Assembly: GCA_921293015.1 (NCBI GenBank)
Contig: OV121091.1
Span: forward strand, 9,701,755-9,765,754
Length of the DNA: 64,000 nt
Direction: 5' to 3'
Origin: Phorcus lineatus
Lineage: Eukaryota > Mollusca > Gastropoda > Trochida > Trochidae
This document shows positions 7,831-61,688 of this stretch, in pieces (position 1 is the first letter of the stretch; each line of letters opens with the position of its first letter). Under the pieces are notes generated by a model, which worked only from the letters and a program-made list of their open reading frames with translations, made no database searches and was not told where the DNA came from. The translations under genes were made by a program, and so were the position numbers.

Positions 7831-8145
7831 AGGAGGAGGAGAGTTGTTGTTTAATGCCGCTTTCAAGATTATTTCACTTATATCGCGGCTGTTAGTATTA
7901 TTGCAGGGAGAAAGCCCGCAACACCATTGTGGCTATGCATTGCGGTGAAACCTGCGAGCATCGGCTGGAACTAGCGAACCATGGGTGGTACTGCAGTGAA
8001 TTTCAGTGTAGCATTGCACCCAAATCTGACTGCGTGTAGAACAGTTCTCTACTGCAGACAAAGTTGCCGAGCCCCTGGCGGGATTCGAACTACGGACCTC
8101 CTGATCCGAAGCCGAAAACACTAACCACTGCACTATCCCGCCCCC
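7831..8145 (-). mobile_element. tRNA-derived SINE, full-length copy with 12-bp target duplication
   Basis: A 315-bp insertion is flanked by perfect direct repeats TATGAAACTAGG at 7819-7830 and 8146-8157. On the minus strand it begins with a tRNA-like head (8142 down to 8077) with A-box-like and B-box-like promoter motifs, followed by a body of about 245 bp. The same body recurs at 35086-35340 with roughly 90% identity by eye, which confirms a dispersed family. Its pol III head and target duplication mark it as a SINE mobilised by a LINE. It landed just upstream of the Tc1 transposase at 8198. Confidence 0.88.
8077..8142 (-). promoter_or_regulatory. tRNA-like pol III promoter head of the SINE
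   Basis: On the minus strand the segment opens GGCGGGATAGTGCAGTGGTT and ends GTTCGAATCCCGCC. The outer seven bases GGCGGGA and TCCCGCC can pair like an acceptor stem. AGTGCAGTGGTTAG resembles an A box and GTTCGAATCC a B box. The T-stem pairing is poor and no clear anticodon arm is visible, so this is a SINE head, not a functional tRNA gene. Confidence 0.75.
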
Positions 8146-8197
8146 TATGAAACTAGGGTCAGTACGATACCTACTGTTCTGTGGAAGATATAGTGTC

Positions 8198-9199
8198 ATG
8201 CCAAGATTGACACCCGAATACAGAGAACGCGCCATTGCGTTAATTCAGGAGGGATTGCCTAGCAGAGCCATTGCCCGAAGGTTTGGATGCCACCATTCGA
8301 CCATTGTGACACTGGCCAATCGTTTCCAGCAAACAGGGTCAACCTGGGATAGACCAAGACCGGGGCGGCAACGTGTAACAACGGCTCGACAAGACCGATT
8401 TATTGTCCGACAGCATCTACAGGACTGCACATTGCTAGCTACCCGTGTTGCTGCTGCTGTGAGAGGAAGGCTAGGGAACATCAGTGGTGACACTGTTCGT
8501 TGCCGACTACGATCAGCTGGACTACATGCCCGACGACCGTATGTTGGACCAATATTGACTCAGCGCCATCGAGATCACAGGATGGTCAAGACATCACCGG
8601 CAATGGCAAATTCAACGGTGGCATGGCATCATGTTCTCGGACGAATCCAGATTTCATCTCAGGAACGCTGACGGGAGGGTAAGAGTGTGGCGTTGCCGGG
8701 GCGAACACTTTAACAATGACTGTATTGTGCAAACTGATCGTTGGGGCGGGGCAGTGTAATGGTTTGTGGAGGCATTAGCTACCAGCACAGAACAGAACTA
8801 CACGTGTGCAGAGGTAGAATGAATGCTGTCTACTACAGGGACAATGTGTTAAGGCATCATGTTGTGCCGATGTTCAGACGTCATCAAGATCTGCACACAT
8901 TTCAACAAGATAATGCTCGAGCACACACACCGCGCATCTCCATGGACTTCTTAGCGCAGAACAATGTGCCATTGCTCGAATGGCCAGCTCTCTCTCCTGA
9001 TCTTTCACCAATAGAGCATCTTTGGGACAACATTGGCCGCAATCTTCAACAGGGCCCCCAACTGCAAACTCAACTGGAAGCAGCACTGCAGCGAGAGTGG
9101 CAAAGGATCACACAAGCGACTATTCAAAGGCATATCACCTCCATGCGACGACGTTGTATGGCTTGTATTGATGCTAGAGGAGGGCACACCCGATACTGA
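8198..9199 (+). pseudogene. Tc1-like DDE transposase, frameshifted
   Basis: Tc1/mariner transposase of the DD34E type, about 330 residues when intact. The start ATG at 8198 gives MPRLTPEYRERAIALIQEG, the beginning of the paired helix-turn-helix DNA-binding region, with CHHSTI in the recognition helix. The first catalytic Asp lies in FSDESRF (codon at 8640). The second is in FQQDNARAHT and the third acidic residue is the Glu of SPDLSPIEHLWD; 34 residues separate them. Two frameshifts disable it, one near 8582 (before the FSDESRF block) and one near 8745 (before SVMVCGGIS), where the usual Trp is Cys. It ends at the TGA at 9197-9199. Terminal inverted repeats are weak: GTCAGTA near 8159 and its complement near 9190. 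Confidence 0.92.
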
Positions 9200-11855: not shown

Positions 11856-13087
11856 TTACAGTTTTGTTTCCTTGTCAAGATCGTCTACATTAACCTCGGT
11901 ATTTATTCCAACAGAACTGGAGCCCGTGCGAGAGGAAGACGGGGAGGGGGTGCCCCTGTGCTCATCTGATGGAACTGAGGTCGAGAGTCGGACCATGGGA
12001 CTTCCTCTGGTCCTGTTTTCTCTTTTAGCAGCTTCGGGACCAAGAACATTGAATTCTGATGTCCTGTGAACGGAATCGGCGGCTGATTTCACCGGGACCG
12101 GTTGATGAGACGTTGGCGAGACTCTGTTTCTTGACTCGAGCCTGTTTCTTCTCTCATGGTTGTTAGTAGGGACGGCTGATCTAGAGTTTTCCTGGTGAGG
12201 TGTTTGGGTAGGCAGCATTCTTTGGACTTTTTGGGCTGCTCTTCTGTTAGCTTTCCTTACATTTGTAAACCTTGATGTGTGATTTTGATTAACGTGACCG
12301 AATATTTTTTTAATGCATGACTGTGATGCCTTTAATTTTTTTGCTACCATGAATAACGAGAGATTTCCTTCCTCTGAAATAGCAATGTCCTCACAAAGTC
12401 TATCCCTGACTCTATCGAATACAGGCACAGAGTCATCCCCGCTGTCAGAACTCTCATCGCTGTCCTCTGAAGTGGCATCCTGGTGTAGGTTGTGATGTAG
12501 CAGGTACTTGACGATCCTCACTTTGGTCTCCCCATCGACTTCCTTTGAACTGCCATCACCTGCTGTCACCGCGTCAGGTTCATCTTCAACCATAGCTCTT
12601 TGCGACGGCCTTTTATCTTTCCGTTTGAATGGGTTTGGGATCTCTGTTGTTGCCATAATATGTAAAAACGTTGTCAGTCGATGCCACAACATACCAAAGA
12701 ACTGGATCACGAGCAGTATTCCAAAGATGAGCATGAAGACGACTGATATTGGTTCAATGTCCTCACCGACAAAGTGCCCAACAGAACATGGGAGCTGGAT
12801 TGAGAATACCTGATTCATCTGTAGAGTGACCACGAGGACGATGAGCAGACTGTTGGTCACCAGGAAAAGCAGACAGACTTTGTTCCTCAGCTCCTTTAGG
12901 TCCTGTCTTGCCTTGTCCTGGTCCTTCAAATGCTCGACCTCTGGACTTAGGTACTTCTCCAGCAACTCCTTCCAGAACAGCCTTTCTTCCTCGTCCATCC
13001 GTTCGTTCCGTTGTCTCACTCTTTGAAAGCATAAATCTTCTGTCCAGTGACACCTTAGTTGGTTGCTTTTATTTAGCTGTCCAGAAC
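11856..13087 (-). CDS. CHS: Chitin synthase exon 14 (last membrane spans and cytosolic tail)
   Basis: Encodes LRCHWTEDLCF, FWKELLEKYL, two final membrane spans (LLFLVTNSLLIVLVVTLQM and the VVFMLIFGILLVIQFFGML region) and a hydrophilic tail of about 250 residues. The tail holds an acidic Ser/Asp run (SEDSDESSDSGDDS), a basic block and a Ser/Thr-rich end, stopping at TAA 11858-11856. The acceptor is TTTTAACAG at 13088. Such a long tail suggests regulation by phosphorylation or partner binding, which is inference. Confidence 0.95.
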
Positions 13088-16000
13088 CTGTTAAAATAAG
13101 TTAACATTGTAAACATCAACACAATATTTCGTAAACATTTTTATAACAACATTAAATCATGTGTATCAAGGACAAAGGCAAATAAAACAAGACATTAGAG
13201 TCGAAGTTTTAGAATCATCATTTGATGACCACATAAAGTTTTCTCAGAAGGTGGCTCTTTTTTATAACAATGTTAGAACTAAAAGGAATTCCTAATAGTT
13301 TTCCATATTCATACATATGCAACTATACGTCATAAGACATGATCACGGTGTTAACAAGAAATTTCTACATACATGTACCTCTACTATCAGATGTGCCCAC
13401 CATTCTTTCAATTCTATCTAGTCTCTCAATTATTCTATCTTCACTTTCAGTGTTGAAAGCCAAACATCTGCAGAGGTTGTTCCCGATGTTCCTCCAACCA
13501 TCGTCCCCCTGCTTTCTCGACCCTCTGGCAAGGGGTACCTCTCTTGTGCCCCATGATACGTTGTTAAGGTTACACAGTGAGTAGATTATGAGCAGCATGG
13601 ACATTGTAGGCGTGAAGAAGAAGAATATGACGCCAGCAATGATGCATGAAAATTCCTGAGGGTGTAGGAGGGCCGCAATGAAGAAGATCCCGACAACCCC
13701 AATTAGGAAGGAGGTCGTGGTTGAACACACGCCATGTTTGGCTGCCTGGAGCAGGAGGCCCACAAGAACCACCATCATGGACAGGATGTAGAACACGGAC
13801 AGCAGACCTGCGTACTGGATCTGGGAACAGGAACAACTGATGTAACTGGTGATTGTTCTGAATATAATGAAGGATGATGAAGGATGATGTTGAATATCTA
13901 GTGTCAAAGTAGAACTCACTAGATCCATACTTCATCCTACCTGAGTTTTGGTGGAGGTCCAGAGACAGACGACTATGAAGGAGCCAACAAGGATGAGGTT
14001 TAAGATGAGAGCTGCGTAGAGAGGTATTGCTGGGAAGGCCAGGTTGATGGCCCCGAGGATGAGCAGGAAGATGGTCCCGGGAGTAAAGAGGAGACAGACC
14101 ATGAGGGCGGTCTGGTACAGCAGGAAGAGAGACGAGATGTTGTTGTTCTTCTTTGTCAGGTGGCTCCAATTCTACGCAACAGGAGATATTCCGATAAAGA
14201 GGTATGTTGTATAAATTAATTGACTTCAACAGCTTCAACATAAATTTGTATAATATTTGTTTACAGAGAAAAAAGGTCTCCTAACTCTTTGGTAAACATC
14301 CGATTACACAAAGGGTGTGATGTATACATTTTAAGTGAAATAAATTGCACCTTCCTTAAAGTTACAACAATAAACTAGTCTTTATTTGTAACACAAAAGA
14401 TGTTGGTTCTCCAAAAAGCACTGAGGCAACATAGTTGCCAAATAAATGATATAAATAAATAGTTGCTATAAATGAAAGTATTTGCTTTAGAGACTATTTA
14501 TAAGATCCTAAGATTGTAGGAAGTTTTGGCGTTTTCTCTTTGTGATGGTTTGCTGTTCATCATTAAAGCAAGTCAGCTGTGACCTTTCATAAAACATGAT
14601 AATCAGACAAAAATAAAACTTGTTGTGACGCTACCGACATCAGATTGAGAGAGTTTGACTCAGTAACTTCCAGTGACTTTCTTTATTATAATCTTCTCCT
14701 GCCTAAAATCCCCAAAAGTAAGCAGGGAATTATTGAAGATGGACTTTCAAAGGTATGAAATTATTCTATTGAGCACAGAAAGTTTCGTTCAATTGCAACC
14801 TCTCTTGTTGACAGGTTACAATCAATGGTTTGCAATAAGCAGACAGACAGTATTGGATATCCTAAAAAATAGGAATTCAATAGGAATTTGAATAGAGGTA
14901 ATTTATTTTAAAAAGATGCCCTTGGCATGTTGACGAGTAACAGAGTCTATGAATTTGGACAGGCTTTCCCTGGACGAGAGGTGACATGCTGAACAGTTTA
15001 CCGTGAGCAGGTCCAGAGTGTTGGACATGGTGGAGGGGCTCCAGCGCTTCCTCTGGTTGAAGAACTCGCCGAACGCTTCCGGGGCAAAGGTGAATGAGTC
15101 TGAGGCTGCGCAGTACTCGATCCTGTGACCTCTCTGGAGCAGCAATGTGCACAGCCATCGGTCTTCACCTGCAAACCACAACGTAGTTGAAGTAATGGTT
15201 CCTAGTAATGGTTCTTAGGCTATCAAGAATAGGGTTATTGGGCTTACATTATATGTTATCAGGGATCAAATATAGGCTTCATAGACTCCAGGGATGAGGT
15301 TGTTTGTAAAGGACTAAATGGGGATTCAAGCTAGAGTATCAAGACCAGGACTTAGATTTTCGAAGCTCTCTTAGCATTGAGATTGTTTTATAAAGTACTA
15401 TCCGTTATCATTGTACAAAATAAAGTACACACAACATTAAATTTGTAAGTAAAGTCTCACACCTTTTTTGGAAGTTTTTTAAAATGTAAAGTTCTTATGT
15501 ACTTTAGTTAAAAGGTTGAGAGAGTTTTCAGTAGATGAAAACAATTCCAATAGGCGGTGTTAAGATCATTAACCATCTTCCGCTTGATCATTACATGGTA
15601 AATATTTAATGGATCTTCTTTAAGTCTTCGATGCTGATCTTGACGAACCTTGATCATACTGGACAAAGTGTTTCGACTGTGTAGACGGGGTCGCATATTT
15701 CCTGATGACGTCTTTGTCCATCAAGGCTGATGCCCGAAATAGGCTGAAACATCCGGGGCTACAGAGGACACATCCAGTCACGTGTTCCGTCGCCTTCTGT
15801 AGCCAATGACTGACGGCATACTCAAACTTCTGGTACCATAGGATCGGGCCTGCTCAGATATACATATCTCAAGTTAAACTTGCTGAAAAGTATTGGTGAA
15901 TGACTTTTGACTTTTGTATTAATTCTTGCTGAGGTAACCGAGCTGTACAAAAAATCCTACATCAAATGTTTGTCATTGAAACTCATATCACTCTCATTTT

Positions 16001-32113: not shown

Positions 32114-33571
32114 CTAAAGAGATTGGGTATTTATTGTCTCTCTGTTTACCTTAAGAAGTCTCCAGTAGTTTTTAGGCGATAATTGCTTTTCTTTACGTAA
32201 CTGGGTTCTTATAAAATCATTTTCTTTCTTTATGTACTTATTCATGGTTTTCTTATATTCCTTACTTGCTTTACGGAAAAGAGTTTTATTAGTGTCTGTT
32301 TTGTTCTTATAATAACATGCTTTTGACTTATGAAATGACTTCCGTTTCTTCTTACAATCTGGTCCATACCAAGGTTTAGAGTGTACGTTCCTTTTACTAC
32401 GAGTAGTGGTATTGACCTTATAAGGAACTTCACCAAATGCTTTACGTGCAGAATAGACCAGCACGTGCGTGACCTCTTGCGCTATTTCATTCACAACCTC
32501 TACTGGGTTACCTTGACCTTCCCTTAATGACCTTGCTCTCCTGCACAATTTGATGACACAATCATTTGGAATGTTTTTAAGGAATATATCTACTTTATCA
32601 TGATTACATTTACCTGGTTTGCTGACAAAATGTTTTGTATCATTAATAGCTGGAGTCTGTCCATGTCCTATTTCATGACAGTTGGTTTCTGATATGTGTA
32701 GACTGAAATGAATTGGTTTATGTACATCAGATAGCATAGGACAGAATTCTGAAACACTAAAATCATTGAATAAGGATAATGAATTTGGGGATGAAATGAC
32801 ATAGTCTACTGTACTGACGTCTTTACAAGTTGTTTTACCAATGTGCTTATCCTTACCAATTCTACCATTACAGATTAACAAATTGTGACTTTTACAAATA
32901 TCAATTAATCTAAATCCATAATTATTTGGCTGACCTATATCCTGGGATGTTCTTTCTACTGGGATACCAAGATTTTCAAGCATTAATTCTGAGTCAAGTT
33001 CTGATCTCAGTTCATCAATATCTAGTTCCTTTGATAGATGTTCATCAAAAGTACAAAAATCAATTACGGACTTAGTCCTAGCATTGAAATCCCCATTAAG
33101 AATAATATTGTCAGTATGGGTTGAAATTAAAGTAAGATCATGTTCAATACATTCAAACATTTCTTCACTTGAGAATCTAGAGCATTCAGGTGGTATATAC
33201 ACAATACCAAGGTATAAATCTTGAGGTGAGTTGAACAGATAGCCTGCTAGTTTAACCCATAAAACAGCCTCATTTTCTAAGTCTACTAGAGTAACATAAG
33301 GAAACAAGTGGTCTTTAACAGCTAATCCTATTCCACCAGAACGTCTTATGAAGTTTTTTCTATTTTTCAACAAGACTTTATAACCTGGTATTTCAATATC
33401 ATCTAGTGCATCTGTTTTTGTTTCTTGAAGACATATTAAATCATGTTTCTCAATAAGTTCTATAAAGTCAGGGTACTCAAGTCTTTTTCTTAAACCACAA
33501 ACATTAAGACAAACAACTTTTAGATCAGTATTTGGTTTTTCACTCTCAAAGTGATCCTGAAAGTCACTCAC
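32114..33571 (-). pseudogene. LINE APE-type endonuclease domain
   Basis: Residues 1-290 match the apurinic-like endonuclease that nicks target DNA in target-primed reverse transcription. VVCLNVCGLRKR gives the Asn, LICLQETK the catalytic Glu, GIVYIPPE the Tyr, NGDFNAR the Asp/Asn pair, and STVDYVISSP with LSDVHKPIHF the final Asp/His. The following 190 residues are the linker towards the reverse transcriptase. The frame ends at 32114 because of an apparent 2-bp AG duplication near 32140; in the other frame the sequence continues as RDNKYPISLDDFYDHFKN. Confidence 0.93.
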
Positions 33572-33589
33572 ACTACCACCGACGTCCCC

Positions 33590-47222: not shown

Positions 47223-50200
47223 GTAGGTCAACACACCACACACAAGCACCTTACCCGCTTTTTGAAGTGTTTCCCCTACATTATAAGACGACAAATTGTG
47301 ACTTCAAGGGAAGATATAGGAAATCATATGCAGAGCCATGTTGCACTGAACCTTAAACCACTGAGGTAACTTACCTTAATGAGAAAGACAGTATATGAAT
47401 GTTTTACTACAATTTTTTTTTAACCACATATGAATGGAATCAATCGGTTGATAAATGTTTCATCTACATCATGATTTATGAATTATATATGAATATCAGA
47501 CCAGCATATCAAACACGTCAGCTTGGTTATAGTCGTAACAAATTACATTTCTTCTTTCAGATTGTTATATTAAAAATGTTTGTACTTGAAATTCTTGAAA
47601 AGAATAACCAAAAAAATGTTCACGCATAAAAGAAACATGATTGACACAAGGGGTTACACGAATTTTCAGCGAGATATCAGTAATAACAAGCTGATATTTT
47701 GTATACACTTACTTGTGTGCGCTCTCATGTATCTAGTTGTCAAATCTAAACCAACCAAAACGTTACCCTCAGTAACATATTTCATCTTGGTTATGTTCTG
47801 ATAATTTACTAATAACATACTTGCATAAACGGACATGTCCCCTTGAATTTCGTTTCCACAACAAATACTTTTTAAGCGTTAAACATTGTTTAAAATTGGC
47901 ATTATAGAAATAATCTTGATGTAAAGAATGTTGTATGCTTTAAAGTTGATAGTAACGACTGGCATATAAAAGTGCAGCAATTAAACCACTGGCATATAAG
48001 GTGAGGTGAGTTGGTGTTGTAGTTTTTTCAAGCCAGGTTTGCTTGAGATACTGCTTTTTTGGTCCAACCCTAACTTATCAGCAAACCGCTGCCAGGAATT
48101 GAATGCTTCAACCATTGCTAATGATTGATAACAATGGATTTTGCACTATTATAAAACATGTTAAACTGTTTAATGATTCATTAATTCAAAGATTAAAGAT
48201 TTCAATGAAAAAATAAGGTCAAATGTTCTCAATCTTTAGTTCAGATATGTTCTCAATCTTTAGTTCAGATATGTGTGGACTGTAACTATTGAAATTGAAA
48301 AATGCTTGTTTGCAATCTTTAATGGGTTGATTTAATAGACTTGAAAACCGTTTCAGGCGGAGACCCCTAAAGGTCCATTTGGCAATGGAAGCACCGGTCG
48401 GCTGGAGAGTGTGACTCAGCTTCACGCTGCCGCAGTCAATGGGGACAAGCAGATGCTCACCAGACTGATAGCAGGTGGCCTTGCCTTAAGAATCATAGCA
48501 AATTGTTGCTAGTCAGTAAACTGGCTACGATCAGAGTCCCATGACATAGATGGGTGTATATAAAGCTTAATACTCAAGTCGGAGCAATCCTCATTAACTA
48601 CTTCAAAACATACACTTGTTACTTTTGTGGTGGTGTTGTGGTTTTAGAGGCTACATCTCCTGCGCGCCAAATTTGAATGAATTCATTTACAAAGTGTTTC
48701 TCAAAATGTAATCACGACTTTCAAATGTTTTGTTTTCAAATTAATTAGAATTCATGAAGGGAAGAAAGTAGCAGGTGGAGGTATGTCAAAGATGCTCACT
48801 TTTGCTTTGTCCATTGTGTAAGGGCATGTAAATGTCTTAAGTTTGACAGCTGTACTGCCACTTTACAAATGAAAATAGAATGTATAACTTTCCTTGATAC
48901 AAACCCCCTATGTGAATAACCACATCTCCTGTGTGTATCCCAGCATGCCCGGGGGAGCTTGACGATGGCGACCAGTTTGGCCGGAGTCCACTGATGTTCT
49001 GTGTGCTGGCAGACAGACTGGACTGTGCTGAGGCCCTGCTGAAGGCTGGAGCCCAGGTCAACCTGAGGGACAAGGGAGGCCGCACCGCTCTTCACTGGAG
49101 TGCACATAAGGTAGATGCTGCCTCACTCGAAGCATAAGTTCTTCATCAACCTAAAGGTCATATTTATGTTGTTTTCAGTGTTTTTTCAGCTTTTGATTGC
49201 TCAACATTCTCCTGCTGACCAGACTACAGATGTTTGTGATTACTGTGTTGTTCTTGTGGCAGGGTAACTACCAGCTGCTGAAGCTTCTTCTGACCAGACT
49301 TTAAAAGATGTTTGTAAATACTGTGTTGTTCTTGTGGCAGGGTAACTACAGGCTGCTGACCAGACTACAGATGTTTGTTAATACTGTGTTGTTCTTGTGG
49401 CAGGGTAACTACCGGCTGCTGACCAGACTACAGATGTTTGTTAATACTGTGTTGTTCTTGTGGCAGGGTAACTACCGGCTGCTGACCAGACTACAGATGT
49501 TTGTTAATACTGTGTTGTTCTTGTGGCAGGGTAACTACTGGCTGCTGACCAGACTACAGATGTTTGTTAATACTGTGTTGTTCTTGTGGCAGGGTAACTA
49601 CCGGCTGCTGACCAAACTACAGATGTTTGTTAATACTGTGTTGTTCTTGTGGCAGGGTAACTACTGGCTGCTGACCAGACTACAGATGTTTGTTAATACT
49701 GTGTTGTTCTTGTGGCAGGGTAACTACCGGCTGCTGACCAGACTACAGATGTTTGTTAATACTGTGTTGTTCTTGTGGCAGGGTAACTACCGGCTGCTGA
49801 CCAGACTACAGATGTTTGTTAATACTGTGTTGTTCTTGTGGCAGGGTAACTACCGGCTGCTGACCAGACTACAGATGTTTGTTAATACTGTGTTGTTCTT
49901 GTGGCAGGGTAACTACCGGCTGCTGACCAGACTACAGATGTTTGTTAATACTGTGTTGTTCTTGTGGCAGGGTAACTACCGGCTGCTGACCAGACTACAG
50001 ATGTTTGTTAATACTGTGTTGTTCTTGTGGCAGGGTAACTACCGGCTGCTGAAGCTGCTGCTAGGGAAGGGTGCTGACTGTCGGGAGAAGGACAATGAGG
50101 GGCAGACCGCGCTGCACCTGTGCACTCGACACAAGCTGCCCAAGTGCATGGCCCTCCTCCTAAGACAACTCAACCCCGGGGAGATGGACGACCAGGACAA

Positions 50201-53200
50201 GAACAAGGTACCTACAGGTCTTTAAAGCCTGTCATAGATGTGATTATTACCTCATATTCAGAAATATATCTGGCCAAATACTATGTTCATCTCATTTAGT
50301 TAGGCAGAAAGTTGATATCATATAATTGAGAGTGAGATCACTTATGACTTTTAAGAACCATAGCTTCTGCAAATGATAATACTCTGACAAATAGCATTAC
50401 CCTATAATGGAAAAACACCTGAAGGGTGATCTGTAAACAGATTGTTTTTAAATTCTGGTTCCCTCTTACAGAGAACAGCTCTCCACTGGGCAGCCTCTTA
50501 TGGAAATCTGGAACATGTCAAAATGCTCATTAAACAGGTACGTTAACTTTTAAGGCAGTAGTTTCCTTCTCATAATATCCATCCCAGTGCAAAATGTCAC
50601 CATAGAATAGAATATAGCACTGACCTTCTTGAAGCAACTGCCAGTCAGGGCTTCTCCATTCTTTACATAGCCTAATTGTCTGCGAAGCAGGGAGAGGGGA
50701 TATATATTCAGCTCCGACAGTAGGTTTGTCCCGTTCTTGTTAGCCCGATATCTTGTTAACCACTGCACCATGAGTCTTCAGATTTGGTATCAGACTTCAT
50801 TTGAGGAGTACCCAGACAACAGTCGATTTGGGTGACCATTTGCAAGGTCACTACAAGACTATGACCAAGTTTTAAAATGTTGTTAGCGTAATATCTCATG
50901 AACCATGCACCAAGAGTCTTCACCTTTAATATCAGACTTCAGTGGAGGAATACTCAGACACCAAGACACGGCCAGTCTATTTGGGTGACCTTGATGTCAT
51001 TTCAAGGTCACTACCATACCTTGACCATTTAGCATAGTTTCAATTCTAAAAATTCAGCATTTACATGTATACCAGTTAAATGACCTACTAAGCAATATCA
51101 ATAGAGGTTATTTACAGCGGCAGACCTTTTTTGGCAAAATGAATGCAGAATGACATTGTATGATAAAGAGGTTATCATTCTCGTATGTTTTGGGATGTAA
51201 ATATCCTGCATTAGGAATAAACATTGTATTTTGCGAGCCTTGGCTCATACAATGTTATTCTGCATTCATTTTGTCAAAAAAGGTCTGCTGTCAATACTGA
51301 AGCTGTAGAAGTTATCTTCAAATGTGTGCAGTGATATATTCAAATGAACAGCCTAATGATATCCACGGTAACTTTACATGAAATCAATCCTCCACTCTTT
51401 GGCTTTGAGGCAACAGAGTTGTTGTGATGGCATGATCTAAATGTTCCAGTTGGTCTTAAATATGTTTCTTAATAGAAAAGATGTAAACGAAAATAAATAA
51501 GCGTTTTGATGGTAGATTTGAACCTGAATGCTTTCGCCTTTGCATTCACATGTAATCAGGCGGCGAGCGTATCTCGCTTAGAACAAGAGTTCCTTCCCTT
51601 TTCAAAATGCAAATGGCAGCTTTTGTAAACGCAGCGTTACGGATAGATTAACTAATACTTACTCTACTTATTTTCCGAAACCCAATAAATGATGAAAACA
51701 TGTATGATACATCGAAGCTAAATATGAGGTCACTGAACATGTGACTCAATCTGTCTTGGGTTCCCGTGAGTAAATGATAGCTCAGTTCATTCATTAAAAT
51801 AGGCCAGGGATCGTATAGAATAGGCATATGTATTTCGGTAGATTTCAACCAGCTATGTAATTGAGTTATTTTGCACTGCTTGATCATGAACTTCACGAAA
51901 CAGCTGGACAAAGTCTGCTTGTCATTTCTTCAACTTAATTTTGATTCATTAGATGCTGAATAATTTGCTGAAGCCATCTGTTGTGCAGGCATTCCAAATG
52001 ATAAAGCGTGTGACGTCATAGTAATTTTCAGAAAAAGTTCCGGCACTTGACCTCTGTAATTTGTATCGGTATCCGCATATGACCCCAACGAATATCAAAA
52101 TAATATCTGTTGACTTTATTATGCCGAGAACACTATCCATTGTATGATAAAACTATTTACCATAACCATTGTCCATTTTCTGATAATAAATCTCGACTAT
52201 TTTCCTGTTTTTTGTCACTGTGAATAACTGTGCTAACTGATAGGCATTGAGATGTTAATATTCTTAAACAACCTCAACTTGTTGTTGAAATAACACCATT
52301 TATGAAGGTACCCTTATGTGACCCCAACAACATACTCAGTGCCCCTTTCAACATGAAGTTTGAGTTTCTTTGAGGGGCATTTTAGAAGCTGATTTGATGA
52401 AGAAGAAGTTCTTATGGATGACAGATTAGGAAGAAAATGCCTCGCAGACAGCCCCCTTTATGCTGGTCCCGGAAGGTTGATAAAAAGCTTGTCATGATTA
52501 ACCAGTCTGACGACCCAAACTAACTCCTTAACCACCTTAAGTGCCTCATTCCCAGGATGAAATTCACAATGGAAGAAGAATAAGACAACAAACTACAATT
52601 CCTCGACATCATGGTAGTAAATTTAAGGAACAACAACCAACTTATAGACAGCGTCTACAGGAAGCCGACCCACGTGGACCAGTACCTCCACAACACCTCC
52701 AACCACCCCCTGCAAGTAAAGAAAGGATTTAATCCATCCAGATCATACTCCAACGGCAAACCAGCATCAACTGAGAAGGAAGGCCCAAACCGCCTTGTCT
52801 ACCACATCCCTTGTGATTGTGGAGTGTAACAACATTGGTTAAATGCCTCCCCCCCCCCCCCCCCCACCCTCGTCAACTTAAAAATCAAATGACACCAGAC
52901 CTCTGGACAAAAGAAAGATTCAAAATTTGCCATATCAGACCAAACCCAATCCTCATCCTAGGAATCCATTGTACTTTATAGCAGCTTCAATCTCTGAACT
53001 CAACCTTGTTTCCTACTTTAAATTCCTTATCAAAACAATATGTACATCAAACCAATTAATTGTAACAACACCATCTCATGTATGTATATAAATATTTGCC
53101 TTCATGGAATTAATTGCACGACGTCGGCGACATCACCCAATGGTGGAAGCAGATGTTAAACTTCAAGCCAACAACAATTAATTGCATCACATGCTGGATA

Positions 53201-56200: not shown

Positions 56201-59200
56201 TCAAACTTGGTTCACTATTCACTCTAAGTATTTGGCCTGTTAGCATGATTTTCTTGTCAATCTAGAAATAATATATTATGTCAATTAAAGAGAATCTTGA
56301 TGAAGATGAATATTATGTTGTCATCTGTTTCTATCATGTAAATTAGTGATGTTATGTTTATCAAATTATATATTCTTTTGTTATTACGTATATGCACATA
56401 TGAATCGCTTTGTGAATCTTGAATGTAGACTAGGGCCTCCACTTCAAAATAAAGAGTAATTACTTGAAATCAACAATTCATCAAATTCCTACAGGTATTA
56501 CATATTTAATTATGACAATGACAATATGTTAATATTATGACAAACTGTTTTCTTTATTACATACTTGTCCAGATGATAAGATTATTGCCCACTTTTTAAC
56601 TTTTCAACTCTACACCCTTGCCCTCTGTATTGTATATTTGCCCTCTGTATTACAACCTTGCCCTCTGTATTATATATTTGCCCCCTGTATTACAACTTTG
56701 CCCTCTGTATTGTATATTTGCCCTCTGTATTATATATTTGCCCCCTGTATTACAACCTTGCCCTCTGTATTGTATATTTGCCCTCTGTATTGTATATTTG
56801 CCCTCTGTATTACAACCTTGCCCTCTGTATTATATATTTGCCCCCTGTATTACAACTTTGCCCTCTGTATTGTATATTTGCCCTCTGTATTATATATTTG
56901 CCCTCTGTTATATATATTTGCCCTCTGTATTGTACTGTCCTCTATATTATATATTTGCCCTCTGTGTTATATATTTGGCTTCTGTATTATATATTTGCTC
57001 TCTGTTTTGTATATTTGCTCTCTGTATTATATATTTGCCCTCTGTATTGTACTGTCCTCTATATTATATATTTGCCCTCTGTATTATATATTTGCTCTCT
57101 GTTTTGTATATTTGCTCTCTGTATTGTATTTTTGTCCTCTGTATTCCATATCCTCTCCCTGGCGTGAACAGCTCTTCATGCTGCTGCCCTGTCCGGTCAC
57201 ACCAGCACTGTTCGGATCATGCTGAGTTCAGGTGCTGACATTGACTGTGTAGACCTAATGAAGCACACACCACTGTTCCGGGCCTGTGAGATGGGACACA
57301 CAGACGTTGTGCAGGTGCTCATTGACTCAGGTGCTAAGGTGGATGCTCTGGATCAGGATGGCCGGTCTCCACTACATTGGTTAGTGCTTAGCGTATTAAA
57401 AGTTACCATGTGTCCGCCAGTTTGATATGGAGATATATCATGTGTCGGAGTGAAATATCAAACGTTAACGAATCTCATTTGATATTTCATTTGGACACAT
57501 GATATATCTCCATATCAAACTCGCGGACACATGGTAACTTATATATTTTGACGAGGACCCTGATTTTATGCTTATAATATGGCTTAAAAGATTGGATGGG
57601 TTAAAATGGCTGCTGATCTTGTGAGTGTTATTCATTTATTTATGAATTTACTAATATGATTTTTATACCACTGTGTAAAGCACAAAAACTACGAGACGGA
57701 AATTGCAGATTAACAAAATTAAATGAACATAATGAGTAATGCAGGGCTTTTTTAGGTTTGATTATTCGGGCACGTGACCTTGTGTATATGATCCACCTTG
57801 GAAACGTTCGATTTGAAGCGGCGTTAAAATCTCTGTAGATTTATAACTGTCGTGGCGAACGGTTGTGAGAGTAGCGAATGCATTTGACGCACAGAACATG
57901 CATGCATCACAGCATAATGCACAGGTTGGTTTAAAAGTTTAATATGAATGAAGAGTCGGCGATGACCTCGAATATAGATTGATTTTCCGGTTTACCATTT
58001 CCAACTCCAGCTCCAGCTCGCTGCGAGCGAGTGAACTGATAGGCCGTTGTCGACAAGTGACTTGTCAAGATTCTTTCGCTGCACCAACATTTCATTTGAA
58101 TAAGAGGTTACGTGTTCGAGCAGCGTGACCTTAGAAATGACTTTGATTATTTGGAAAACGCTGTGGATGTAGAGGTAGGGTTCCACAAACCAGCATAGCA
58201 TAGCCTTTGTTAACCTTAAAGTGGTACAAGGGAGATAACTCATGGCAGTACGTTGTCGCTCGTAACTAGGGACGCGCTGGCTCTCTCCTTCTATTTGTCC
58301 GTCTATTCCATTACTGTTTCTGTAGCAAAACACAAAAACTGTAAGTCCTACGTCAACAAAACTTGGCATGTGGATTAATCAGCATAGATGTTACTTTTGG
58401 CTTTTCATTTTCTTGCGGTAATTATTTTTCCATGCAAAGGAACTTCAAATTTTGTAGTCTGATCGGAACACAAAAACTGTAAGACCTAGGTCAGTGAAAT
58501 TTGGAAAGTGAATGAATTGATCAGCTTGTGCAGATGTGTCTTTTTAGGGTTTTCAATTTCTTTCGTTTTTATTTCTTGACGGTTTCCAAAATGTAACTTA
58601 AAGTTTAGTTTCAAAGGAAGATGTCTAAATCTGTAAGACGTAGCGATAAAAACTTTGTATGTGGATCAATCAGCAAGCTTAGTTTTTCCTTTTGAAGTTT
58701 TTAACTTCTTTGGATAATAATTTTAAGTGGTTTCAATAGAAAGATAGAATTTTTTCCACTGAAGATCTCAAAAAATGAAAAATTTAATAATTACAATAAT
58801 AATACATTATCACCCTGAAAGGAATTCATTTTGTATCATTACAGAGCTGGTGAACATACAGGAAGGGAAACACAGGTTACATGTGATACATAAACAAACA
58901 CATTCTATTAATTTCAAGATCATTTAACAGACGAACGCTGAAAGAAATGAATGTGATTTTAACTCTTTTTGTTTTAAAACAGGGTAATAGATATCTTCTG
59001 CCTGAAGCAAGCTGAACATATTCACCTTATAATACATGATCTTGATCAGACACAATCTTACTGGATAATTTTAAAACTCTTATTTCCTAAAGATATGATG
59101 AATTTGTAAAAGAAACACCGGCAATTTTCCCAGCAATTTGAAGAACTCTTTCCAAGTGAGACGTGTTAACAATAGATAAGGAACCATGGATTATGACAAT

Positions 59201-61688
59201 ATTTAAACTTGCAATGTTGATGAATCAGCATGTGTAGATGTGAATTTTCCGGTATTCAATTTCTCGAAACTTTTTTCTTGCTTTTTTTTGACTGTTTCCA
59301 TGAAAATGTAATTAAGGATTTTGTTTCGGGAGGAGAACTAAAAATTTGAGAACCTAACTTAATGAAACTTGGTGTGTAGATTAATCAACATGCATAGATG
59401 TGCCTTTTGGGGTTTTCAGTGGCTCCATTGGAAAGAAATGGACATGCACATTTTGCCCCATTATAACATAGTTTTAAGTACCAAGTACTCCGCAATCCGT
59501 GCTTGCTTCTGAAATTATTTCTGGAGTATTTCTTGTTAAGGATCAAAACCGAACTGAGTTTTTGTTTGAGAAAAGTAGCCCGCAGTAGAGGGAAATTGGG
59601 GAGGGCCAAAGGCCTTACCCAGTTTTTTGAGGCCACTCAAACTTATGCAGTGTGACTTTTAGAACCTGTTAGAGAGTTCCACAGTGATCCGACAAAAAGG
59701 ATGCAGGCAGAAACCTGCAAACAAGGCAGTACAATACTGCCGACTTGCATCTCAAGCTCAGCTATTGGTAGACTATTTTTAGATAGTTCATAGGTCATAA
59801 GTCACAGTGTGTAAGTTTTAGTGGGGTTATGTCCCAGGGGTTTATGAACCCTGAGATAGGATGAGAAAACAGCCATTAGTGTTATCGTTGTCTTTTGTGG
59901 CCGAGTCGGGAAATTGGCCGGTTAAATAAGCAAAGGCTGCACAGATTGAAATCGACAAGTTTGTGATATTTTATGATTCTATTTAATGGGAGGAAGAGTT
60001 GGGGTCATCTAACTTCAAACACGAATAATTTCCATTTAAGAGAAAATTCCTGAAGAAATCCCCAGGTGTTCCTAAAGAAATCCTAGGAAACTGACTACAG
60101 AGGTTAACCCGGTAAAAGAGAACCCAGTAGAATAATAGAGTGACTTCAGTAGAGGTTTATAAAAATAACTTTAAAACTCAAGGGCGCTTATTCAAGTCTA
60201 TTTCAATTGTATAACCATTTTTCATAACTAGTAAACTAATGACTTGTGGACAATTTGGTAGGCCTTTTACCTGTAGAGTGTTGATGTCTCATTAAGGCAT
60301 TACAACTTAAGGGTGCAAAAATTTGTTAATATATTTACCAAAAACAGGCTAATTTTTCCAAAGTATAACATTAAGACTTGATAACTACAAGATGTTTTGT
60401 GTGCTATTACCTGTTCCTTTACCTTTACCTGTCCAAATATGTTACATCACCTGTCTTCTTGAACATGATCCCCAGTCATTGATATAACTGACTACACATT
60501 TTTAAAATCTGTATTTGACATGAAGGCGGCCTAACTACAGGCAGGGGCAAGTGAGCTTCTATCATATGTTTTAATAGTCGTAATTGAGATTCTGACCCTT
60601 GTCTTGAGATGTATCAGATGAATATGTTCTGTTCGTCTTCTGATATCATTTTTTATTTCAATAAAAGATCTGCATATTTTAGATACAGAACTGCCACTTG
60701 TTTCCACTGTCATAGCATTGTGAGGTCATTATGTTATGGTGTCATAACATCATTATATGAAATCAAACCATGGCAGTGTCCTTGTTGAAGATGACAGGGC
60801 CTTGTGCATAACTTACTGTGAAAACATCTCACAGAAGCAATACCATCTCTTGAACACAGTTGTATGTGATGAATCATTATAAAGAATTCTCTTATCTCTG
60901 CAGAGGTACTTAATCTCTTTGTGCAGGATGAATGCTTGTGATTCTATCAAATTAATCAGATCAAAATGTTCTATAATGGAGGTACTACGCCTAGAGTGTG
61001 TAAAAATCATATTTATGTTATGATGATCTGCAGAAAAAAACAATGGTTAAGTTTATATCTTTCGACTTCAGGGCGGCTCTGGGAGGCCACGCTTACATCT
61101 GTCAGACACTCATCAGGTTTGGGGTCGACCCAAACGTCAGGGACCACACTGGGTATGTTGCAACCTTAGCCCTAACCACAATATCCCCTGATTTTATTAA
61201 CTTGTACTTATAATCCATATCTGCTGATCTGTCATCTTTACTTTTGGAAAACAATACGAATAAAGAATGAAATGTTTTTACGATAAAATGTCCTGCGATT
61301 TAATAAGTTTGATAAAAGTTTTTGGTTTTTGAGGTTAATCTTTGTTGTATGTTACCTACAAGACTAGAATCACTTGTTACCTACAAGACTAGAATCACTT
61401 GTTACCTACAAGACTAGAATCACTTGTTACCTACAAGACTAGAATCACTTGTTACCTACAAGACTAGAATCACTTGTTACCTACAAGACTAGAATCACTT
61501 GTTACCTACAAGACTAGAATCACTTGTTTCTGAAGCGAATGAATGTTGAGCACTGTGAACAATTTGGAAGTAAAGTTTGGTGGACCTGCAGGCGGAGCCC
61601 GATCCAGTGTGCAGCGTACGGAGGGTTCGTGAACTGCATGTCGGTGTTGATGGAACATAAAGCTGACCCCAGCACTCAGGACAACGAG
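47181..61688 (+). CDS. INVS: Inversin, 13 coding exons, first 501 residues; continues past the window
   Basis: Ankyrin-repeat scaffold of the inversin compartment in the proximal cilium; in vertebrates it acts in left-right patterning, kidney cystic disease (nephrocystin 2) and the switch to planar-polarity Wnt signalling. Exons: 47181-47222, 48357-48474, 48944-49110, 50034-50207, 50472-50537, 53356-53457, 53952-54050, 54160-54235, 54570-54676, 55502-55667, 57172-57379, 61072-61152, 61592-61688. All joins are GT-AG with matching phase and total 1,503 nt. Family-specific runs include QLHAAAVNGDK, PLMFCVLADRLDCAEALLKAGA, DSNIGIPDTEGKTPLHWAA, NWQDYEGRTALHLAVADGN, AFMWAAGKGADDV and KHTPLFRACEMGH, in the order of vertebrate inversin. 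The IQ motifs and C-terminus lie off-window. The start MAAVAGPSSSN is the first in-frame ATG of its exon; a longer N-terminus is possible. Confidence 0.96.
48357..48474 (+). CDS. INVS: Inversin exon 2 (start of first ankyrin repeat)
   Basis: Residues 15-53. TQLHAAAVNGDKQMLTRLIA is the characteristic inversin opening. Acceptor GTTTCAG, donor G|GTGGCC (weak), phase 1. Confidence 0.93.
48944..49110 (+). CDS. INVS: Inversin exon 3 (ankyrin)
   Basis: Residues 54-109, DDGDQFGRSPLMFCVLADRL followed by DCAEALLKAGAQVN and GRTALHWSAHK. Acceptor TATCCCAG, donor AAG|GTAGAT, phase 0. Confidence 0.96.
49211..50054. repeat. 63-bp minisatellite carrying 13 copies of the inversin exon 4 acceptor
   Basis: The unit runs from GGTAACTACCGGCTGCTGA through CCAGACTACAG and ATGTTTGTTAATACTGTG to TTGTTCTTGTGGCAG. 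It contains the pyrimidine-rich 3' splice site of intron 3 and the first seven codons of exon 4. Acceptor AGs end at 49262, then at 49340 and every 63 bases to 50033. Copies are nearly identical, with single-base variants such as TACTGG and ACCAAAC. Units 2-13 are open and in frame with exon 4. The first copy (from 49263) still has AAGCTTCTTCTG like the real exon and meets a TAA after 13 codons. Confidence 0.97.
50034..50207 (+). CDS. INVS: Inversin exon 4 (ankyrin); acceptor lies in a tandem array
   Basis: Residues 110-167, GNYRLLKLLLGKGADCREKD then TALHLCTRHKLPKCMALLL and PGEMDDQDKNK. Homology to inversin begins at GNYR, placing the ancestral acceptor at the last repeat copy (50033). Any of the 11 acceptors before it would add multiples of 21 residues in frame. 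Donor AAG|GTACCT, phase 0. Confidence 0.92.
50472..50537 (+). CDS. INVS: Inversin exon 5 (66-nt ankyrin micro-exon)
   Basis: Residues 168-189, RTALHWAASYGNLEHVKMLI then KQ. Acceptor CTCTTACAG, donor CAG|GTACGT, phase 0 on both sides. Confidence 0.95.
50740..51020. repeat. Two diverged copies of a dispersed repeat in intron 5
   Basis: Two segments about 130-150 bases apart share CCATGAGTCTTCAGATTT-like and ATCAGACTTCA, GAGGA, ATTTGGGTGACC and TTCAAGGTCACTAC blocks. Similar AAGGTCACAT phrases recur near 55260. Non-coding. Confidence 0.6.
51119..51290. mobile_element. MITE with 46-bp inverted repeats, inversin intron 5
   Basis: Arms 51119-51164 and 51245-51290 are inverted copies containing CAGACCTTTTTTGG and AATGAATGCAGAATGACATT with about three mismatches, around an 80-base centre. 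Outer complementarity TATTTACAG versus CTGTCAATA suggests the termini extend to about 51110 and 51295 with a TA target. No coding capacity. Confidence 0.8.
52540..52830 (+). pseudogene. Penelope-like element fragment (end of RT and start of GIY-YIG linker)
   Basis: LQFLDIMVVNLRNNNQLIDS then VYRKPTHVDQYLHNTSNHPL is the conserved FLD-x-YRKPTHTD-YL-HP block at the C-terminus of Penelope-type reverse transcriptases. The frame goes on to RLVYHIPCDCGV, equivalent to the VVY-IPC segment before the GIY-YIG nuclease. An in-frame stop upstream (near 52580) and truncation on both sides show it is dead. A C17-like run follows at 52849-52865. It lies in inversin intron 5. Confidence 0.85.
52849..52865. 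repeat. Poly-C tract
   Basis: An uninterrupted run of about 17 C residues, prone to length error in sequencing. Confidence 0.9.
53356..53457 (+). CDS. INVS: Inversin exon 6 (ankyrin)
   Basis: Residues 190-223, DSNIGIPDTEGKTPLHWAAS then RDHQAVSCVKLIL. Acceptor CTTGCAG, donor CTG|GTGAGT, phase 0. Confidence 0.96.
53952..54050 (+). CDS. INVS: Inversin exon 7 (ankyrin)
   Basis: Residues 224-256, with NWQDYEGRTALHLAVADGN, one of the best-conserved inversin repeats. Acceptor CTGTCCAG, donor CTG|GTAAGT, phase 0. Confidence 0.96.
54160..54235 (+). CDS. INVS: Inversin exon 8 (ankyrin)
   Basis: Residues 257-281, ALDNMFRTPLHWAAVL. Acceptor CTCTTGCAG, donor G|GTGAGA, phase 1. Confidence 0.95.
54570..54676 (+). 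CDS. INVS: Inversin exon 9 (ankyrin)
   Basis: Residues 282-317, GHSKIVGLLLDSGADYASSD then GATPLHYAAQNNYD. Acceptor TTTCATAG, donor GAT|GTGGGT, phase 0. Confidence 0.95.
55502..55667 (+). CDS. INVS: Inversin exon 10 (ankyrin)
   Basis: Residues 318-372, DTVEVFVSRK then GRTAFMWAAGKGADDVIRVF and DKNGGT. FMWAAGKG is diagnostic of inversin. Acceptor TTCCCTAG, donor G|GTGCGA, phase 1. Confidence 0.96.
55797..56170. mobile_element. TIR element with TA target duplication, inversin intron 10
   Basis: A 374-bp element between TA dinucleotides (55795-55796 and 56171-56172). The ends CTGTATATTATTGTGTATAA and (reverse complement) CCGTATATTATTGCATATAA match over about 26 bp with few differences. The interior repeats AAGTCAACC-like phrases and has no ORF. 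TA duplication fits the Tc1/mariner/pogo group; that is an inference from the target only. Confidence 0.8.
56619..57150. repeat. 20-bp minisatellite ending next to the exon 11 acceptor
   Basis: About 26 copies of a unit with consensus TTGCCCTCTGTATTATATAT and variants with ACAACC or GTATAT. Because 20 is not a multiple of 3 and the unit lacks stops, all three forward frames stay open and give the same periodic peptide; these are not genes. The array stops about 20 bases before exon 11 of inversin and supplies its pyrimidine-rich context. Confidence 0.95.
57172..57379 (+). CDS. INVS: Inversin exon 11 (two ankyrin repeats)
   Basis: Residues 373-441, LHAAALSGHTSTVRIMLSSG then KHTPLFRACEMGHTDVVQVL and DQDGRSPLH. 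Acceptor GTGAACAG, donor TG|GTTAGT (weak), phase 2. Confidence 0.96.
57400..57540. mobile_element. Hairpin MITE (63-bp arms) 20 bases after the exon 11 donor
   Basis: Arms 57400-57462 and 57478-57540 are inverted copies with 4 mismatches, beginning AAGTTACCATGTGTCCGC on each strand and separated by about 15 bases. Almost the whole element is palindrome. No clear target duplication was found beyond AT-rich flanks. Confidence 0.85.
57541..61071. other. Inversin intron 11, repeat-rich, no exon seen
   Basis: Contains several diverged copies (near 58330, 58475, 58625 and 59345) of a segment with AAACTGTAAG-like, AACTTGGCATGTGGATTAATCAG and GCATAGATGTG phrases. No ankyrin codons were found between exons 11 and 12. 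Confidence 0.55.
61072..61152 (+). CDS. INVS: Inversin exon 12 (ankyrin)
   Basis: Residues 442-468, WAALGGHAYICQTLIRFGVD then PNVRDHT. Acceptor GACTTCAG, donor GG|GTATGT, phase 2. Confidence 0.95.
61351..61525. repeat. 25-bp tandem repeat, 7 perfect copies, inversin intron 12
   Basis: Unit GTTACCTACAAGACTAGAAT plus CACTT, repeated without spacers from 61351. There are no unique spacers, so it is not a CRISPR-like array. It ends 66 bases before exon 13. Confidence 0.97.
61592..61688 (+). CDS. INVS: Inversin exon 13 (ankyrin), last exon in the window
   Basis: Residues 469-501, RSPIQCAAYGGFVNCMSVLM then EHKADPSTQDNE. Acceptor ACCTGCAG, donor GAG|GTACAT, phase 0. The expected next exon (GRTALHWS-like) was not found up to 64000. 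Confidence 0.95.

What the first reader, a model, noticed from the sequence alone, without database searches (positions are those of the whole stretch)
49211..50054. Tandemly amplified, frame-preserving 3' splice sites at inversin exon 4
Thirteen candidate acceptors exist. Twelve are spaced exactly 63 bases (21 codons) apart and each is followed by the same in-frame codons as the real exon. Using an upstream one would add up to 11 copies of a peptide containing FVNTVLFLWQ and GNYRLLTRLQ between ankyrin repeats 2 and 3 without breaking the protein. The very first acceptor instead leads to a stop after 13 codons. This could be a source of splice-length variation in a ciliary scaffold, or a neutral expansion in which only the last acceptor is used. 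The near-identity of the copies suggests recent expansion, so copy number may vary between individuals.
Basis: partly seen in the sequence, partly recalled or inferred. Interest (0 to 1): 0.85.

Follow-up and report, generated by a model that had tools for sequence, protein, structure and literature searches.

The report
Repeated splice acceptors in molluscan inversin
In a probable mollusc, the end of one intron and the start of the next exon of a cilia gene are repeated in a row so that thirteen splice acceptors stand in line, and a second such array sits later in the same gene; similar arrays are known from lancelets, and most likely only the last copy is normally used.

Summary
The array is real: 13 acceptor-type sites, intervals 78 then 11 x 63 nt; 12 of 13 read in frame through exon 4, the first stops after 13 codons. 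The 63-nt unit equals the spacing of two CTGCTGA matches, one in intron 3 and one in exon 4. Tandem arrays over intron-exon boundaries are known in lancelets as "mirages". Here the source is very probably a mollusc (mitochondrial gene order). New: the gene carries a second array, 15 acceptors 42 nt apart, again open in the host frame except after the first acceptor. A detached relic of it on another chromosome is stop-ridden (26 of 35 units against 1 of 14 in the gene). A kinesin gene carries a third array, 0 of 4 upstream acceptors open. Best reading: mutation-driven mirages, last acceptor dominant; the open frames may reflect selection against leaky use, or chance. No RNA data were available. 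Known kind, apparently new host group.

The parts
48944..49110 (+). Inversin-like exon 3 (ankyrin), ends AAG|GTAGAT, phase 0
   Evidence: Pfam Ank E 3.4e-10 on 48946-49110; 72% identity to a recalled human inversin fragment over 50 aa; junction read
49111..49262 (+). Intron 3 up to the first acceptor (152 nt)
49212..49218 (+). CTGCTGA in intron 3, 7-nt match to exon 4 (50046-50052); 51 nt before the first exon start plus 12 nt after the exon start = 63 nt
49263..49340 (+). First, diverged unit (78 nt): exon-like start GNYQLLKLLL, then stop after 13 codons
49341..50033 (+). Eleven 63-nt units, each with exon-start codons, branch-point-like TTAAT, pyrimidine-rich tract and CAG; open frame GNYRLLTRLQMFVNTVLFLWQ (two units GNYW, one TKL)
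   Evidence: branch point by inspection
50034..50207 (+). Exon 4 proper from the last acceptor (174 nt, 58 codons), donor AAG|GTACCT
   Evidence: Pfam Ank; only this acceptor gives the protein that aligns with the recalled human fragment without an insertion
56618..57145 (+). Another array (20 nt x 26.7) ending 26 nt before the exon at 57172; no AG in 56618-57169
61350..61528 (+). Intronic array (25 nt x 7.2) 64 nt before the exon at 61593; does not cross the boundary

Best explanation
A minisatellite of the 'mirage' type: the last 45-51 nt of intron 3 and the first 12-18 nt of exon 4 were duplicated between two short CTGCTGA matches and then expanded and homogenised by slippage or unequal exchange, giving 13 locally near-identical 3' splice sites. 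In mature RNA the last acceptor, the only one that yields an uninterrupted ankyrin repeat and that lies 174 nt from the exon's donor, is most likely used nearly always; upstream sites are at most leaky and give in-frame length variants (or a stop from the first). Shown: sequence, unit, frame, second array, relic. Inferred: mode of expansion and splice choice.
For: Unit length equals the microhomology spacing. Copies 1 and 2 differ by 3 and 2 bases in the 51-nt core, copies 3-13 by 0 or 1: homogenised inside, diverged at the edge, as described for a lancelet mirage. Lancelet globin, Adh3 and troponin C mirages are reported not to disturb splicing (passages). A kinesin exon of this genome has a 42-nt array across its acceptor in which 0 of 4 upstream acceptors give an open frame, so upstream sites seem tolerable because little used. 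The preference for the upstream of two equal-strength acceptors is strong under intron definition and significantly reduced under exon definition (PMC9225289 section 9). Exon length is 174 nt from the last acceptor and 945 from the first.
Against: Acceptors overall show an upstream preference, and the intron-proximal rule (Reed and Maniatis as cited in PMC9225289) favours upstream sites; the first lies only 152 nt from its donor, within the intron-definition range, though it lacks the branch-like A at -23. Both inversin arrays are open in the host frame while the detached relic is not, which neutrality does not predict. No RNA evidence.
Confidence: 0.72

Rival explanations
1. Upstream acceptors are used at a real, low level and selection has kept only in-frame, stop-free units, so the gene makes a ladder of inversin isoforms with 21-aa (array 1) and 14-aa (array 2) insertions whose range varies with allele length.
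For: Both arrays in the gene have units divisible by 3 and open in the host frame: 11 of 12 and 13 of 14 upstream acceptors open. Rough chance per array 0.12-0.13 and 0.19. The detached array-2 relic on C37 has stops in 26 of 35 upstream units and only 2 of 35 open. In both gene arrays the only stop lies behind the acceptor farthest from the exon.
Against: Units within an array are not independent, so the relic contrast is one against one. The kinesin array is closed (0 of 4 open); at least 2 of 3 arrays open by chance is about 0.08 (my arithmetic from those rates). The 5' position of the stops also follows from homogenisation at the exon end. AlphaFold on the array-coded stretch, without an alignment, gave one long helix, pTM 0.26: no support for a fold.
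Confidence: 0.2
2. Assembly artefact: copy number inflated or collapsed in the assembly.
For: Units 49719-49971 (five) are identical; no reads available; PMC3087553 reports one lancelet mirage that was wrongly assembled in a draft.
Against: Variant units (49530, 49593, 49656) and diverged first copies are interspersed; three more acceptor-bearing arrays exist in the assembly.
Confidence: 0.05
3. Intron birth in progress: each unit also holds AGG|GTAACT one base after its acceptor, so units could be spliced out as 62-nt introns or act as stepping sites.
For: On a recalled human-like matrix the site scores 2.19, like the donors of exons 3 and 4 (2.09, 1.05). Mirages have been proposed as sources of new introns.
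Against: Other donors of the gene score up to 6.5 in the same call. AG and GT are not adjacent (AG-G-GT), so each step would leave one extra base and shift the frame; +5 is C; array 2 has no such donor by inspection.
Confidence: 0.03

Closest known systems
'Mirage' minisatellites of amphioxus (globins BflGb6 and BflGb9, PMC3087553; PGBD5, PMC3902484; Adh3 and troponin C as cited there). Passages read; Canestro 2002 not held
   Same: Tandem units spanning an intron-exon boundary, many with splice signals, homogenised inside and diverged at an edge
   Different: Here a probable mollusc; units 63 and 42 nt (BflGb6 150-160, BflGb9 157, Adh3 10-72), 13 and 15 acceptors (6 and 3 repeat units in the two BflGb6 haplotypes), units open in the host frame, two arrays in one gene; RNA and length instability not tested
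[quoted passage not shown]
   Same: Direct duplication of an intron end and exon start, inheriting branch site, pyrimidine tract and 3' site
   Different: There a new intron is in use; here no new intron is shown and copy number is much higher
Tandem (NAGNAG-type) alternative acceptors (recalled)
   Same: Several acceptors compete for one donor and can preserve frame
   Different: Sites lie 63 nt apart with their own branch-point-like and pyrimidine sequences, so the choice would fall at first recognition (distance classes in PMC9225289)

Membership tests
Mirage minisatellite | Tandem repeats whose unit contains an exon-intron boundary of a gene | tested here: met
   array 2
Mirage minisatellite | Homogenised inner units with a diverged boundary copy | tested here: met
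   copies 1 and 2 differ by 3 and 2 bases, copies 3-13 by 0 or 1 of 51
Mirage minisatellite | Normal splicing of the mRNA despite the extra sites | not testable with these tools
   no RNA data
Mirage minisatellite | Length instability between alleles | not testable with these tools
   one assembly; the relic on C37 has 36 acceptors against 15 in the gene, but it is another locus
Mirage minisatellite | Cephalochordate host (the named cases seen) | tested here: not met
   mitochondrial order COX3-ND3-ND2-COX1-COX2-ATP6 against rrnS-rrnL-ND1-ND6-CYTB-ND4L-ND4-ND5 equals the three-block order of early-branching molluscs. A matter of range, not of mechanism
Recursive (ratchet) splice sites | AG immediately followed by GT (recalled definition) | tested here: not met
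   AG-G-GTAACT in every unit

The most novel reading that the evidence does not exclude
Boundary-spanning minisatellites are a recurrent source of splice-site multiplication outside lancelets, and in this inversin gene two of them are held in frame by selection because upstream acceptors are used, so allele length sets the range of protein isoforms.
Probability: 0.2. Interest if true: 0.8.

Novelty: new member of a known kind. Interest (0 to 1): 0.5.

Why it matters
Thirteen acceptors with the same sequence from -22 to +9, one donor upstream and one donor downstream make a natural test of whether the spliceosome pairs sites nearest across the intron or across the exon. Finding such arrays in a probable mollusc, in two genes of a small sample, suggests that mirages are not a lancelet peculiarity. 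The gene array and its stop-ridden relic offer a way to ask whether extra acceptors are under selection.

Tried and rejected
Lancelet origin: the first guess because of the mirages; rejected on the mitochondrial gene order. Mobile element or dispersed repeat as source of array 1: not supported, unit at one locus. A second inversin gene as comparator: none found; the exon 4 protein gives its own locus and one weak 40% match on C32. RNA structure of two units: z -0.64, not notable. Protein fold of the array stretch: single-sequence AlphaFold, mean pLDDT 69.6, pTM 0.26, one long helix; the two Pfam matches that fall in the repeats are below their cut-offs. Rfam (gathering threshold) and tRNA scans of the window: nothing. 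Pfam on two plus-strand frames of L010: nothing; its protein genes are on the other strand. The 30 ankyrin loci were left out of the boundary survey because long exons of 99-nt coding repeats dominate them. On re-checking I found that my first survey reading 'no array at a donor' was wrong: L094 has a two-copy duplication across a donor, below the 30-nt limit.

Full report
Observation. The sequence at 49211-50054 is as described. There are 13 copies of TTGTGGCAG; the exon-side starts are 49263, 49341 and then every 63 nt to 50034. TRF gives one array, 49306-50052, period 63, 11.9 copies, 98% matches. With the first exon base as +1, the 13 sites are identical from -22 to +9. From 12 of 13 the host frame (phase 0 after AAG at 49110) is open to the exon end at 50207; from the first it ends after 13 codons. 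The unit is open in only one of its six frames, the host frame. The unit was found nowhere else in the assembly.

What gene and what animal. Exons 3 and 4 match ankyrin models. Fifteen exons from 48944 to C17:9771777 (window-extended coordinate 70023) were recognised: 13 by tblastn with a recalled human inversin fragment and the last two by reading; the best hits are collinear, so inversin is a sound but recall-based name. No second copy was found. The window lies in an assembly of 957.8 Mb, 74 contigs. Its mitochondrial contig C74 (19,115 bp) has two opposed blocks: COX3-ND3-ND2-COX1-COX2-ATP6 and rrnS-rrnL-ND1-ND6-CYTB-ND4L-ND4-ND5. ND4L is by reading, ND2 only by a shared antiporter model, ND6 below its Pfam cut-off, ATP8 not sought. 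Passages of PMC3704766 and PMC11488289 give this order for early-branching molluscs (chitons and Haliotis; solenogasters). The animal is therefore very probably a mollusc and not a lancelet (lancelet order recalled, not looked up). The species was not identified.

Origin of the array. Intron 3 holds CTGCTGA at 49212, 51 nt before the first exon start; exon 4 holds it 12 nt after its start. 51 + 12 = 63: the unit is exactly what an exchange between the two matches would produce. Copies 1 and 2 have 3 and 2 changes in the 51-nt core, copies 3-13 have 0 or 1, so expansion or homogenisation is most recent towards the exon. Arrays are common in the window: 17 merged TRF arrays, 5.6% of its bases.

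A second array in the same gene. Beyond the window, at extended coordinates 69244-69882 (C17:9770998-9771636), TRF finds 42 nt x 15.2. It holds 15 CTTACAG acceptors 42 nt apart, the last at the exon that with its upstream exon reads RKRAVEEYRRKEDVQHRRDVEERYV. In the host frame 13 of 14 upstream acceptors are open to the exon end; the first stops after 5 residues. So 2 of the 15 recognised acceptors of this gene lie in TRF arrays (score 50 or more).

A relic and a third array. The 42-nt unit also forms an array on C37. L095 shows 36 acceptors, then about 97 nt like the start of that exon, with no blastn match to the upstream intron or exons of the gene. In the same frame 26 of its 35 upstream units hold a stop and 2 of 35 are open, against 1 of 14 and 13 of 14 in the gene. 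As a survey I examined 53 exon matches: 30 myosin-head loci (30 of the 128 matches; many are close paralogues in one cluster) and 23 kinesin exons (of 131 matches). TRF and self-BLAST at the match edges found: one array across an acceptor, L089 (C15:43700300-43701257), 42 nt, 5 acceptors, 0 of 4 upstream ones open; one two-copy duplication ending at an acceptor, L091, whose upstream copy has no AG at the matching place; one two-copy 20-nt duplication across a donor, L094, both copies with AAG|GTAATA; and two short arrays near but not across an edge, L050 and L082. Profile edges are not exact exon edges and kinesin flanks were 350 nt, so arrays may have been missed. Thirty ankyrin loci were not counted.

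How it probably works. From the third acceptor on, each site has a branch-point-like TTAAT with its second A at -23, a pyrimidine-rich stretch and CAG (by inspection); the first two acceptors differ at the branch-like motif. Two rules pull apart. Across the intron the first site is nearest (152 nt); across the exon the last is nearest (174 nt against 237 to 945). PMC9225289 (passages and section 9) reports an overall upstream preference for acceptors that is strong under intron definition and significantly reduced under exon definition. Only the last acceptor gives an uninterrupted ankyrin repeat. Lancelet cases are reported to splice normally, and the kinesin array could hardly be tolerated if its upstream sites were often used. 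I therefore put 0.72 on a mirage with the last acceptor dominant.

The open frames. A unit divisible by 3 and free of stops has a chance near 0.12-0.13 for array 1 and 0.19 for array 2. Two open arrays in one gene, with the stop in each only behind the farthest acceptor, and a stop-ridden relic, hint at a filter against harmful leaky splicing. The kinesin array speaks against it, units within arrays are not independent, and polarity of turnover alone would put diverged copies at the 5' end. This is a hypothesis, not a result.

Known or new. Boundary-spanning minisatellites are known from lancelets as mirages, at both 5' and 3' boundaries. In the listings of my searches (20 of 1,236; 6 of 6; 2 of 2; 10 of 10; 20 of 24; 0; 10 of 16; open-access library only) no title named such arrays in a mollusc; apart from the papers cited these were seen as listings only, and the original Adh3 paper was not held. 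PMC4039745 (nematode intronic minisatellites and splicing) and PMC7931591 (gastropod hemocyanin introns) were checked by passages, which do not describe them. I file this as a new member of a known kind in a host group that seems new.

Noticed in passing
L042, window-extended 69244-69882 (G000:C17:9770998-9771636): Second boundary-spanning array in the same gene: 15 acceptors 42 nt apart, open in the host frame except after the first.
   Followed up: yes
L095 (G000:C37:15336200-15338700, minus strand): Detached relic of that array with 36 acceptors and about 97 nt of the following exon on another chromosome, stop-ridden in the host frame; how it moved is unknown.
   Followed up: partly
L089 145-363: Kinesin exon with a 42-nt array across its acceptor; 3 of 4 upstream units hold a stop themselves and none of the 4 upstream acceptors is open to the exon end.
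   Followed up: partly
L091 229-349: Two-copy duplication, 76 nt apart, beside a kinesin acceptor; the upstream copy lacks the AG, possibly a decayed mirage.
   Followed up: no
L094 481-526: Two-copy 20-nt duplication across a kinesin donor, both copies with AAG|GTAATA: a possible 5' mirage at birth.
   Followed up: no
window 56618-57169: 552 nt without a single AG (11.7 expected from base composition) directly before an acceptor, mostly a pyrimidine-rich 20-nt minisatellite.
   Followed up: partly
L010 6175-9200 (mitochondrial contig): About 3 kb of a very short tandem repeat that reads as alternating Met-Tyr in frames of both strands, in a mitochondrial contig of 19,115 bp.
   Followed up: no
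window 14903-15214, minus strand: Chitin synthase exon (PF03142, E 1.2e-9); neighbouring minus-strand frames (11856-13931) may be further exons.
   Followed up: no
window 8105-8671 plus strand; 32114-33589 minus strand: Tc3-type transposase helix-turn-helix frame and an endonuclease frame of LINE type.
   Followed up: no
window-extended 84224-84664: 72-nt x 6.1 array with AGGTAAAG in the consensus unit (donor-like); gene context not examined.
   Followed up: no
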